A DNA stretch of 32,162 nt from Candidatus Eiseniibacteriota bacterium (GTDB lineage: Bacteria > Eisenbacteria > RBG-16-71-46), in assembly GCA_016223045.1 (NCBI GenBank), contig JACRPT010000007.1, positions 1 through 32,162 on the forward strand. Direction: 5' to 3'. Positions 11,713-15,358 of the stretch are shown here, piece after piece (the first letter of the stretch is position 1; every line of letters begins with the position of its first letter). The notes beneath the pieces were generated by a model, which did no database searches, was not told the origin of the DNA, and saw nothing but the letters and a program-made list of their open reading frames with translations. The translations under genes were made by a program, and so were the position numbers.

Positions 11713-11739
11713 CCGAGCGGGCGGTTCAGACAGTATGGA

Positions 11740-11869
11740 ACGACCGGCCTGCGGTCGTATGGTCGTGCTCTCGCGAACGAGAGGCACGATGGTGGCGGGG
11801 ACGCCGCCACACACGATCGCGGGTTAGCACCTCGCGGCGCCAGAGCCGCATACGAAGGAGGCCGGTCGT
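11740..11869 (+). ncRNA. Highly structured 5' leader of the IS, multi-branch RNA that includes the RBS and start codon
   Basis: Closing stems ACGACCGGCCT/AGGCCGGTCGT (11740-11750/11859-11869) and TCGTATG/CATACGA (11755-11761/11849-11855) enclosing three hairpins (11763-11789, 11792-11810, 11818-11836). Confidence 0.5.
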
Positions 11870-12986
11870 GGACCCGAAGGGTATCACCTGGGTGGGCCTG
11901 GACACACACCAGAACTCGAACAAGGTGGCGGCGTTCTTCCCGGAGCGCCCCGAGCCGGTCGAGTGGCAGGAAGCGACCACGGTCGAGGCGGTCCGGCGGC
12001 TGGCGCGCAAGCTGCGGCGCGAGGCCCCGGGCGAGGTGCGGTGCTGCTACGAGGCGGGGCCGACCGGCTACGCGCTGCAGCGGCAGCTCCGGGCGGAGGG
12101 CATCGCCTGCACGGTGGTGGCGCCCTCGCTGACCCCGGTCAAACCCGGGGTGCGGATCAAGACCGATCGGCGTGATGCCCGCAAGCTGGCCGAGCTGTTC
12201 CGCGCCGGGCTGCTGACCGAGGTGCATCCGCCGAGCGAGAGCGACGAGGCGCTGCGCGACCTGTGCCGCTGCCGGGATGACGTGCGGGTCGACCTGCTGC
12301 GCGCGCGCCACCGGCTGAGCAAGTTCCTGCTGCGGCGCCACTGCCTCTACCGCGAGACCCAGCATCACTGGGGCACCCGCCACCTGGCCTGGCTCGAGCA
12401 ACTGCGCTTCGACGACCCGATCAGCCAGGCCACCTTCGACAGCTACTTCCTCGCCATCCAGCAGCTCGACGAGCGGCTGCGCCAGCTCGACGCGCGGCTC
12501 GCCGAGTTCGGAGCGCAGGAGCCGTACCGTGACCCCGTGGCGTGGCTGCGCTGCTTCCGCGGCATCGACACCGTGACCGCGGTGTGCCTGGTCGCCGAGC
12601 TCCACGACTTCCGCCGCTTTCACTCCGCGCGCCAGCTCATGTCCTACGTCGGACTCGTACCGAGCGAACACTCGAGCGGGGAGCGGGAGCGCCGCGGCTC
12701 GATTACCAAAGCCGGCAACGGGCACGTCCGCCGCCTGCTGGTGGAAGCGGCCTGGCATCAGCGACACCGGCCCGCGATCAGTGCCCCGCTGCGACAGCGG
12801 CGCGAGGGACAGCCGGCGCGCGTGCTGGCGATCGCCGACCGCGCCCAGGAGCGACTCGCCGCCCGCTATCGTCGCATGACGCTTCACGGCAAGGTGCATC
12901 CCAAGACCATCGTCGCCATGGCGCGCGAGCTGACCGGCTATCTCTGGGCAGTCCTCCATCCCGCGGCCGTGGCGACGCGGAACTGA
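11868..12986 (+). CDS. IS110 family transposase (DEDD plus Transposase_20)
   Basis: VGLDTHQ, CYEAGPTGYALQR, IKTDRRDARKLAEL, FRGIDTVTAVCLVAEL, SYVGLVPSEHSSGERERRGSITKAGNGHVRRLLVEAAW. GTG start, RBS AAGGAGG at 11855. Confidence 0.95.
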   Translation: MDPKGITWVGLDTHQNSNKVAAFFPERPEPVEWQEATTVEAVRRLARKLRREAPGEVRCCYEAGPTGYALQRQLRAEGIACTVVAPSLTPVKPGVRIKTDRRDARKLAELFRAGLLTEVHPPSESDEALRDLCRCRDDVRVDLLRARHRLSKFLLRRHCLYRETQHHWGTRHLAWLEQLRFDDPISQATFDSYFLAIQQLDERLRQLDARLAEFGAQEPYRDPVAWLRCFRGIDTVTAVCLVAELHDFRRFHSARQLMSYVGLVPSEHSSGERERRGSITKAGNGHVRRLLVEAAWHQRHRPAISAPLRQRREGQPARVLAIADRAQERLAARYRRMTLHGKVHPKTIVAMARELTGYLWAVLHPAAVATRN

Positions 12987-13036
12987 ACTCGAGCAAGCAA
13001 CCCACGTGATGCGAGGTGACGGATGAAGGTCGGCAC

Positions 13037-13262
13037 GATCCGGAGGACGCGCGACTGCGCTGTGCGATACGGACGAAGTCGGTCCCCAACTCGCGATCTC
13101 AGAGAGCGGACCCTCCCGACGGATCACAGTCATGCGGCTCTGGCCGGGACGCCGACGCAACCCGCGAATACTAGCGTGACTCGTCGTCGAAGCGCCCGAC
13201 CTTCTCCGTCCCTCGGCCTGGCAGGCCCAACACTGCGGCCACTTCCCGGAGGAAGTGGCCGC
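13037..13262 (+). ncRNA. Candidate bridge RNA / seekRNA region in the 3' non-coding part of the IS
   Basis: About 300 bp of non-coding sequence between the transposase stop and the right IR, where IS1111-type elements encode their guide RNA. Inverted repeats GATCCG/CGGATC (13037/13120), GTCGG/CCGAC (13078/13116) and a 12-bp hairpin at 13235. Confidence 0.4.
13235..13262 (+). repeat. Perfect 12-bp stem, 4-nt loop hairpin GCGGCCACTTCC-CGGA-GGAAGTGGCCGC
   Basis: Read directly; lies 26 bp before the right IR. Confidence 0.7.
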
Positions 13263-13300
13263 CTGGAGAGAAAAGTGCCTTGACGTAGGGTCGTTCCATA

Positions 13301-15358
13301 CTAGAGCGTGAGCGCGTGGCTCCCGGCGCCGAGCGTGCCGACCTCGCGCGAGAGGACGCGCCGGCCCGCGAGGTCGAACAGCTCGAGCGTGGCGGACCCG
13401 GACCCGGACCCGGACCCGGACCCGGACCCGGACCCACCTCTGGTGGGTGCCCCGGTGGGTGCCCCGACCTGCGCGGGGTGCGGGTGCCCCGGTGCCCCGA
13501 CCTGCGCGGGGGCACCCGAAGGAGTCGGGACCGGGTGCCCGGGCGCCCCGACGTCCGGCAGGGTGAACCAGACCACGAGCGCGCCCGACGCCGGATTCGG
13601 CCGCGCGCCGGCCAGCGCGAACGCCGCGCCGTCGGGCACCTCGACCCAGGTCTCGCCGGCGTGCGCCGCGGCGCCGCCCGCGGCGATCGCCAGCCGGTAG
13701 CCGTAGCGCGCTCCCGGCGTCACGTCGCGGTCCTCGTACGCGACCATGCCCGCGCCGTCGGGCAGCGCGCGCGCGACCGCGCTCCACGCGGAACCGGGCG
13801 AGTGGCGCTCGATCACGACCGGAGCGCCGCCGCTCACGTTCCAGCGCAGCAGCACGCGCTCGCGCGTGGCGTCGGCGCTCACCAGCGATGCGAGTGCGGC
13901 GACCACGCCGTTCGAAGTGACGCGCGCGGCATAGATGTCGCCGGCGTTCCCCGCGCGCTGGTCCTGCCACGCCACGATGGCGCCGGCCGCGCCGTCGCTC
14001 ACGATCACCGGCGCGCTCTGGTCGCCGGTCGCGTTGCAGATCGCCGCGCCGTTCGCGGGCCAGCCCGCGACGACGGCGCCCGCGCCGGTCACGTGCTGCG
14101 CGTAGATGTCGGCGCCTGCGCCGCGAGCGTCGCTCCACGCCACCACCGCGCCCCCGCTGCCGTCCGCGACCGCGACCGGCTCGAGCTGGTCGCCCGCCGC
14201 GTCGCACAGCGCGGCGCCGTTCGCGGGCCAGCCGGCCGCGATGGTCCCGCCGCCCTGCACGTGCTGGGCGACGATGTCGGCGCCGCCGCCGCGCAGGTCG
14301 CTCCACGCCACGAGCGCGCCGCCCGCGAGATCGCGGACCGCGACCGGGTGCGCGTCGCCCACGGCCGCGGTCGAGAGCGGCACGCCGTCCGCGGTCCAGC
14401 CGGGGTAGAGCGCGCCCGCGTCGGTGACGCGCACGGCGTAGATCCCGGGCGACACGGCGCGCGCGTCGAGCCACGCCGCCACCGCGCCGCTCGCTCCGTC
14501 CGCCGCCAGCGCCAGGTGGTTCTGGTCGCCCGCGCGCGTGCACAGCGGCACCCCGGTGGCGAGCCAGCCCGCGGCGATGGTCCCGGCGCCGGTCACGTGC
14601 TGGGCGTAGAGGTCGGCCTCGGTCCCCGCGCCGCCATCGCGGAAGTCGCGCCAGGCGACGATTGCGCCGTTAGCCTCGTCGGAGATGAGCACCGGGTCGG
14701 TCTGGTCGCCGGATGCGCTGCCCGCGGCGCGGCCGTTGATTGGCCATCCCGGCAGCAGGTCGCCGCGGGAGTCGAAGCGCACCAGGTAGACCTTCACCAC
14801 CGAGCCGGCGCGGTAGTCGGCCCACGCCACGATCGCGCCGCCCGAGCCGTCCGGCACCACCGATGGCGCGAACTGGTCGCCGGGGGCGTTGCAGACGGCG
14901 AGTCCGTCGGCGGGCCAGCCCGGCGCAGCCGCGCCCGAGGCGAGCAGGTGCTGCAGGTAGATGTCAGGCAGCCCGTCGCGCGGGTCCGACCAGGCGATGA
15001 AGGCGCCGCCCGCGGCGTCGCTGGCGATCGCCGGCTGCGTCTGCTCGCCGGCCGCGCCACAGACCGCCATGCCGTTCACGGGCCAGCCCGCGACGCGCTG
15101 CCCGAGGCCGTCCAGACGCGCGAGATAGAGGTCGTAGTCCACGCCGCCGCGCAGGTCCTTCCAGCCCACCAGCGCGCCGCCCGCGCCGTCGGCGGCCACG
15201 AACGGCGCGCGCTGGATGAAGAACGCGTCGCTGACGACCGGCACCCCGTTCGCGGTCCACGCGGTGTCGGCCGTCGCCGCCGCGCGGGCGTTGGGAGCGA
15301 GCGCGGCGGAGAGCGCGAGCGCAAGGACTGGCGCAGCGATGGCGCAGTATTGACGCAT
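13301..15358 (-). CDS. Secreted repeat (beta-propeller-like) protein with FlgD-like C-terminal domain, 3' end truncated at the IS boundary
   Basis: Signal peptide MRQYCAIAAPVLALALSAALAPNARA; eight repeats of about 48 aa (P-V-SDG-GGAIVAWxDxR...DIYAQHV...GWPANGxAxCNAxGDQ); ends ...ATLELFDLAGRRVLSREVGTLGAGSHALTL* with the stop TAG built from the IR. Confidence 0.8.
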   Translation of the reverse strand: MRQYCAIAAPVLALALSAALAPNARAAATADTAWTANGVPVVSDAFFIQRAPFVAADGAGGALVGWKDLRGGVDYDLYLARLDGLGQRVAGWPVNGMAVCGAAGEQTQPAIASDAAGGAFIAWSDPRDGLPDIYLQHLLASGAAAPGWPADGLAVCNAPGDQFAPSVVPDGSGGAIVAWADYRAGSVVKVYLVRFDSRGDLLPGWPINGRAAGSASGDQTDPVLISDEANGAIVAWRDFRDGGAGTEADLYAQHVTGAGTIAAGWLATGVPLCTRAGDQNHLALAADGASGAVAAWLDARAVSPGIYAVRVTDAGALYPGWTADGVPLSTAAVGDAHPVAVRDLAGGALVAWSDLRGGGADIVAQHVQGGGTIAAGWPANGAALCDAAGDQLEPVAVADGSGGAVVAWSDARGAGADIYAQHVTGAGAVVAGWPANGAAICNATGDQSAPVIVSDGAAGAIVAWQDQRAGNAGDIYAARVTSNGVVAALASLVSADATRERVLLRWNVSGGAPVVIERHSPGSAWSAVARALPDGAGMVAYEDRDVTPGARYGYRLAIAAGGAAAHAGETWVEVPDGAAFALAGARPNPASGALVVWFTLPDVGAPGHPVPTPSGAPAQVGAPGHPHPAQVGAPTGAPTRGGSGSGSGSGSGSGSATLELFDLAGRRVLSREVGTLGAGSHALTL
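13394..13435 (-). repeat. (GGACCC)7 hexanucleotide microsatellite encoding (GS)7
   Basis: Seven perfect units read directly. Confidence 0.95.

What the first reader, a model, noticed from the sequence alone, without database searches (positions are those of the whole stretch)
11740..11869. IS110-family 5' leader folds into a closed multi-branch RNA that sequesters the transposase RBS and start
Nearly the whole 130-nt leader is self-complementary. An 11-bp closing stem (11740-11750 with 11859-11869) covers part of AAGGAGG and the GTG start. A 7-bp stem (11755-11761 with 11849-11855) follows. Inside are hairpin TCGTGC-TCTCG-CGAA-CGAGA-g-GCACGA, hairpin GTGGCGG-GGACG-CCGCCAC and hairpin CGCGGGT-TAGC-ACC-t-CGCG. 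This density is not expected by chance. It could be a translational lock on the transposase, a guide RNA, or both. IS1111-type elements are known for 3' guide RNAs, so a structured 5' leader here would be a second RNA element.
Basis: partly seen in the sequence, partly recalled or inferred. Interest (0 to 1): 0.82.

Follow-up and report, generated by a model that had tools for sequence, protein, structure and literature searches.

The report
RNA lock on a jumping-gene transposase
The stretch of RNA just before a mobile element's transposase gene folds so that it hides the ribosome's landing site, and because the same fold is kept through matching sequence changes in related elements from four bacterial phyla, it is probably a built-in brake on the element's jumping; a similar brake has been shown by experiment in one other element of the same broad family.

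Summary
In detail: the 130-nt leader folds far better than shuffles (z about -5.6), and the closing stem covers part of the Shine-Dalgarno and the GTG start. Relatives of this IS110-family element from Eisenbacteria, Proteobacteria, Bacillota and Actinomycetota carry a leader of the same architecture: P1 pairs with the SD/start, P2 lies just upstream, and the inner hairpin P3 has a conserved frame (GNGG-GUUA...AGAG-CCN'C). On 19 distant leaders (window excluded) 15 of 20 pairs show double-sided compensatory changes (0 of 500 shuffles). A covariance model from those leaders finds the window leader independently (E 1.6e-6). It is not a guide RNA: that is a separate ~180-nt structure 3' of the gene, whose two guides track the insertion junctions across 27 elements (z 4.9 and 6.0); the leader tracks neither. 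Best reading: a conserved cis-acting translational lock. The mechanism has an experimental precedent in ISPpu9 (NAR 2021), so the kind is known; the family-wide motif, absent from Rfam, is new to the sources searched. What opens the lock is unknown; leader-guide pairing is striking only in this element's small clade. Selection on sense RNA, antisense RNA or DNA could not be separated.

The parts
11728..13304 (+). Whole element, bounded by an AG dinucleotide on both sides (11728-11729 and 13303-13304)
   Evidence: Two other left ends (L005, L006) and two other right ends (L028, L029) in the same genome diverge from the window upstream of 11726 and after 13302-13307
11732..11745 (+). Left subterminal inverted repeat AGTATGGAACGACC
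   Evidence: 14 bp, 100% complementary to 13289-13302
13289..13302 (-). Right subterminal inverted repeat
11740..11750 (+). P1 5' arm (closing stem)
   Evidence: covariation in distant leaders; predicted start of a circle-junction transcript lies at about 11741
11859..11869 (+). P1 3' arm, covers part of the SD and of the GTG start
11755..11761 (+). P2 5' arm
   Evidence: P2 has 4 of 6 pairs with double-sided changes in A2
11849..11855 (+). P2 3' arm, just upstream of the SD
11763..11789 (+). Extra hairpin a, seen in the window clade only
   Evidence: 3 pairs with double-sided changes among 5 close relatives
11792..11810 (+). Extra hairpin b, seen in the window clade only
   Evidence: weaker support, 76.7% of cells paired
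11819..11849 (+). P3 hairpin GCGG-GUUA...AGAG-CCGC (stem 11819-11822 with 11846-11849), the family-wide conserved motif
   Evidence: Second pair of the stem is AU 8, UA 4, GC 3, CG 2, UG 2 in 19 distant leaders, never unpaired
11855..11861 (+). Shine-Dalgarno AAGGAGG
   Evidence: sequence
11868..12986 (+). IS110-family transposase, 372 aa
   Evidence: PF01548 E 6.5e-14 and PF02371 E 2.2e-23
13025..13204 (+). 3' guide RNA (bridge/seekRNA type), about 180 nt, closed by GAAGGTCGG/CCGACCTTC; target guide about 13097-13106, donor guide about 13167-13176
   Evidence: 3' region tracks left (z 4.9) and right (z 6.0) junctions across 27 elements; extent and closing stem read from the sequence, not mapped
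11839..11851 (+). 13 nt of the leader perfectly complementary to 13132-13144 in the guide RNA (window clade only)
   Evidence: I3; same 13 nt in L020, L021
13280..13285 (+). -35-like TTGACG in the right end; with the left end abutted it would form a circle-junction promoter
   Evidence: TTGAC/TTGAA present inside IR-R in most relatives, 15-19 nt from a -10-like site; no linear promoter match in the window

Best explanation
The leader is a conserved cis-acting RNA element of a subgroup of IS110-family insertion sequences that keeps transposase translation low. The transcript made from the abutted ends of the excised circle starts at about the first base of P1, so every native transcript (and any read-through transcript) carries the whole fold. 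P1 and P2 bury the Shine-Dalgarno and flank the start, and P3, with a conserved internal loop, sits at the tip. Translation is therefore weak unless something opens the fold. Shown: the fold, its conservation with compensatory changes, its place directly against the start codon, and that it is not the guide RNA. Inferred: the transcript start, that the fold lowers translation, and that the conserved P3 loop is the handle by which the lock is opened or held (transposase, guide RNA, an antisense RNA or a host factor).
For: z -5.58; median z -3.7 over 32 relatives, 24 of 32 below -2; SD pairing 0.80 v 0.59 in shuffles. 19 distant leaders: 82.9% of cells paired, 15 of 20 pairs and 45 cells with double-sided changes, 0 of 500 shuffles, at most 8 pairs when slid by 1-3 columns. 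Model R1 built without the window clade finds the window leader ending at the GTG (E 1.6e-6), the Rhodococcus leader (2.1e-5), and in 47 genomes gives 4 hits, all of them leaders abutting an IS110 start codon, one on a truncated copy the protein search had not listed. Predicted junction TSS about 11741. Precedent: in ISPpu9, also IS110 family, the tnp 5'-UTR is predicted to bury the RBS and mutations weakening the fold raise translation (PMC8450116).
Against: No expression data for this element. Start-codon pairing is not above shuffles in the family, nor is SD pairing in the window itself, so occlusion of the SD by the whole fold is less clear-cut here than in relatives. Strand asymmetry is absent: 224 Watson-Crick, 7 G-U and 12 A-C cells, so the covariation does not by itself show that the sense RNA is the selected molecule. 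Three group members (L049, L054, L055) lack an R1 match and ISEc45 keeps only a short SD-pairing stem.
Confidence: 0.7

Rival explanations
1. The lock is a regulated switch opened (or held) by the element's own guide RNA: the 3' guide RNA pairs with the leader, so transposase is made only when guide RNA is at hand, as antisense Asr9 opens the ISPpu9 leader.
For: 13 nt of perfect leader/guide complementarity 11839-11851 with 13132-13144, same 13 nt in L020 and L021, plus the nearby CGCGGGTT/AACCCGCG. Model R1 also matches the antisense strand of the guide's donor hairpin in the window (E 4.6e-4) and in L008, L009, L020, L021, L031. ISPpu9 precedent.
Against: Across the family own leader/guide pairs are no better than swapped pairs (duplex energy p 0.28; longest match p 0.036 without and 0.31 with G-U). 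The leader's variable P3 base changes without the guide (e.g. GAGG leaders, GCGG guides). Co-folding gains only 0 to -3.8 kcal/mol.
Confidence: 0.15
2. The transposase (or its guide RNP) binds P3 and represses its own translation, a classical autogenous loop.
For: P3 has an internal loop that stays constant (GUUA/AGAG) while a stem pair varies freely, the usual mark of a protein or ligand site; leader and transposase are together in all the genome hits seen.
Against: No binding data; the P3 loop has no sense-strand counterpart found in the guide RNA that the transposase is expected to bind; the likeness is antisense.
Confidence: 0.2
3. The leader encodes a second guide RNA or a decayed 5' bridge RNA, as in IS110-group elements.
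For: IS110-group elements keep their guide RNA 5' of the gene (PMC11187229, PMC11208160); some ISs have two long non-coding regions.
Against: Leader does not track left or right junction (z 0.1 and -0.7; best of four tests p 0.039), the 3' region does; no Rfam match.
Confidence: 0.05
4. The selected molecule is an antisense RNA from the opposite strand (Asr9-like) or extruded DNA at the left end rather than the mRNA leader.
For: G-U and A-C cells are about equally rare; the antisense strand of the guide's donor hairpin resembles the leader in the window clade; ISPpu9 makes an antisense RNA there.
Against: P1 ends at the SD/start whatever its distance from the inverted repeat, and in several relatives (L038, L041, L047, L048) its 5' arm lies well inside the repeat; no antisense promoter match.
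Confidence: 0.1

Closest known systems
ISPpu9 of Pseudomonas putida (IS110 family; 244-nt tnp 5'-UTR, antisense Asr9, sense Ssr9; PMC8450116)
   Same: IS110-family transposase; long tnp leader predicted to bury the RBS; a separate sense RNA of about 180 nt 3' of the gene; AG dinucleotide at both ends; low tnp expression shown there.
   Different: Leader about 130 nt here, roughly 80-138 in relatives, 244 nt there; no evidence here of an antisense RNA; here the 3' RNA is complementary to the leader, there Ssr9 is complementary to Asr9; ISPpu9 has no clear inverted repeats. Its sequence could not be fetched, so kinship of the two leaders is untested.
IS1111 group with 3' seekRNA/bridge RNA (Siddiquee 2024 PMC11187229; Durrant 2024 PMC11208160)
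   Same: Subterminal inverted repeats, DEDD + Transposase_20 protein, guide RNA 3' of the gene with segments matching target and donor ends, circle-junction promoter.
   Different: Transposase forms a different clade and is longer (372 aa); a conserved structured leader with P3 is present here and not found by model R1 in IS5708, ISShdy1 and ISCfr26.
Fold-back or antisense control of transposase translation in IS10, IS50, IS200 (general knowledge; antisense cases as reviewed in PMC8450116)
   Same: Low transposase by hiding the ribosome-binding site or lowering translation.
   Different: Here the native junction transcript is itself predicted to carry the fold, and the fold is a conserved motif rather than a by-product of the inverted repeat.

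Membership tests
IS110 family (DEDD transposases) | DEDD_Tnp_IS110 and Transposase_20 domains | tested here: met
   PF01548 and PF02371 above cut-off
IS110 family (DEDD transposases) | Guide RNA with target and donor segments | tested here: met
   3' NCR tracks both junctions
IS1111 group | Subterminal inverted repeats of 7-17 bp | tested here: met
   14 bp
IS1111 group | Long non-coding region with guide RNA downstream of tnp | tested here: met
   about 300 nt downstream, guide RNA about 13025-13204
IS1111 group | Transposase in the IS1111 clade, 330-350 aa | tested here: not met
   372 aa; separate clade from IS5708/ISShdy1/ISCfr26 transposases, taken here as IS1111 representatives; IS1111 itself was not fetched and ISEc11 was not held
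Translational-lock leader (as in ISPpu9) | Leader folds with the SD paired, beyond chance and conserved | tested here: met
   in the window alone SD pairing is not above the control
Translational-lock leader (as in ISPpu9) | Weakening the fold raises translation | not testable with these tools
   needs reporter fusions
Translational-lock leader (as in ISPpu9) | Antisense RNA to the leader | tested here: inconclusive
   no antisense promoter match, but the scan covers only sigma-70 consensus; no RNA data
5' bridge RNA (IS110 group) | Leader carries target and donor guides | tested here: not met
Any Rfam 15 family | Match at or above the gathering score | tested here: not met
   none at gathering score; only chance-level matches at E up to 10

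The most novel reading that the evidence does not exclude
The leader is a regulated RNA switch, with P3 as its sensing domain, through which an RNA-guided transposase couples its own synthesis to the supply of its guide RNA (or of guide-loaded protein). In this clade the guide RNA itself would be the trans-acting antisense that opens the lock.
Probability: 0.2. Interest if true: 0.78.

Novelty: new variant of a known kind. Interest (0 to 1): 0.55.

Why it matters
IS110-family recombinases with bridge/seek RNAs are being developed as genome-insertion tools, but how the elements keep their own transposase in check is little studied: in the library searched, one experimental case (ISPpu9) was found. 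A covariation-supported leader motif shared by elements in four phyla would make that control a general, testable property of a whole subgroup. It also warns that native 5' ends can depress expression when such recombinases are cloned with their leaders.

Tried and rejected
Leader as guide RNA: rejected by the junction-tracking test. Leader-guide antisense pairing as a family-wide mechanism: not supported for lack of a clear own-versus-swapped preference, kept only as a clade-level possibility. Use of G-U versus A-C counts to decide the strand: uninformative. RNAalifold on the MAFFT alignment of distant leaders predicted no pairs, because several rows are misaligned in P1; pairs were therefore counted for a structure taken from one member (L047), which favours cells paired, so weight is put on double-sided changes and on the independent model hits. 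Rfam: nothing. Viral contigs: no relative. Phages: weak hits only. ISEc11 and ISEc21 reference copies not in the collections.

Full report
Observation. The leader folds at -80.6 kcal/mol against a shuffle mean of -59.3 (sd 3.8), z -5.58, none of 200 shuffles as good. The 11-bp closing stem P1 covers the last three bases of AAGGAGG and two of the GTG start.

Element. The gene at 11868-12986 is an IS110-family transposase (PF01548, PF02371). A 14-bp inverted repeat lies at 11732-11745 and 13289-13302. Four partial copies at contig ends of the same genome, two left and two right, fix the boundaries: homology starts at 11726 and ends by 13307, with an AG dinucleotide on each side. Inspected copies and relatives insert at the stop codon of a gene on the opposite strand.

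Where the guide RNA is. Relatives were collected from the phylum and from plasmids. Nearly all have a 3' non-coding region with a shared scaffold. For 27 elements the longest match between the left junction and the own 3' region exceeds swapped pairs (z 4.9), and so does the right junction (z 6.0); neither junction is tracked by the leader on the same strand (z 0.1 and -0.7), and of four leader tests the best was p 0.039. For example, elements whose right end reads ATACTAG carry AATACTAG in the 3' RNA and those ending ATATCAG carry ATATCAG. The guide RNA is therefore 3' of the gene, about 13025-13204, closed by GAAGGTCGG/CCGACCTTC (extent read from the sequence). The leader is a second RNA element and not a guide.

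Leader in relatives. Thirty-two leaders (the window among them) were folded from the inverted repeat to the start: median z -3.7, 24 below -2; SD pairing probability 0.80 against 0.59 when the upstream part is shuffled; start-codon pairing not raised. For the window alone SD pairing is not above that control. The common architecture is P1 (inner left end with SD/start), P2 (just upstream of the SD) and P3, a hairpin with stem GNGG/CCN'C and conserved GUUA/AGAG loop edges. In 19 distant leaders that exclude the window clade, 15 of 20 pairs and 45 cells have changes on both sides, 0 of 500 shuffles reach four of the five measures, and sliding the partner by one to three columns drops pairing from 82.9% to at most 48.2%. 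The fifth measure, further pair types, is not above shuffles. One P3 pair occurs as AU, UA, GC, CG and UG and is never broken. In five close relatives 7 of 42 pairs co-vary.

Independent check. A covariance model from those 19 leaders finds the window leader at 11788-11870, ending at the GTG (E 1.6e-6), the Rhodococcus leader and, among 47 genomes, four hits, each directly against an IS110 start codon, including a truncated copy that the protein search had not listed. Two of these four were in the training set. The leader-bearing transposases form one supported clade apart from ISCfr26/IS5708/ISShdy1. ISEc45, inside the clade, keeps only a short SD-pairing stem.

How it probably works. When the ends are abutted in the circle, TTGACG of the right end and a -10-like site of the left end give a predicted start at about 11741, the first bases of P1; most relatives behave alike, though the -10 matches are weak. 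Junction transcripts and read-through transcripts would then both carry the lock. That the fold lowers translation is inferred. The inference is strengthened by ISPpu9, an IS110-family element in which the tnp 5'-UTR was predicted to bury the RBS and mutations weakening it raised a lacZ fusion, with an antisense RNA (Asr9) that stimulates translation (PMC8450116).

What might open it. In the window clade the guide's donor hairpin is nearly the reverse complement of P3: 13 nt perfect (11839-11851 with 13132-13144), and the leader model matches the antisense strand of the guide (13203-13115, E 4.6e-4). Across the family, however, leaders do not clearly prefer their own guide RNA, and the variable P3 base changes independently of the guide. 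So guide-controlled opening is a lead for this clade, not a family rule. Transposase binding to the constant P3 loop is an equally open possibility.

Limits. No expression data. The covariation shows a conserved fold but not the strand: G-U and A-C cells are both rare. The structure counted was taken from one member. Sampling of relatives was limited to one phylum and plasmids. Statements on literature rest on the open-access library searched; ISPpu9's own sequence could not be compared.

Verdict. Because the general mechanism is precedented in ISPpu9, this is a new variant of a known kind: a family-wide, covariation-supported leader motif not in Rfam.

Noticed in passing
window 13295-13310; L008, L009, L020, L021, L026, L028, L029, L030, L032: In 10 of 10 copies or remnants inspected, the element's right end supplies or abuts the stop codon of the gene on the opposite strand, so the gene product appears to stay intact; 8 of the 10 look by eye like secretion-sorting C-terminal tails (five were run through Pfam: 3 pass the FlgD_ig cut-off, 2 are below cut-off).
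   Followed up: partly
window 13115-13203 minus strand; L008, L009, L020, L021, L031: The antisense strand of the guide RNA's donor hairpin matches the leader model, as if one were an inverted copy of the other; restricted to this element's clade.
   Followed up: partly
L002 (G000:C59) and L017: A distant second IS110-type element in the same genome also pairs its left end with the region just upstream of the start: GGGTTGCCC with GGGCAACCC (read).
   Followed up: no
L065, L067: IS1111-like IS5708 and ISCfr26 have AACGAAT upstream and ATTCGTT just before the start, so start-region occlusion may be wider than this subgroup.
   Followed up: no
window 13393-13435: Tandem CGGACC repeat in the neighbouring gene, read as a GSGSGS linker before the sorting tail.
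   Followed up: no
L030-L032 (G000 C139, C140, C120): Decayed remnants of guide-RNA and right-end sequence without a full element elsewhere in the genome.
   Followed up: no
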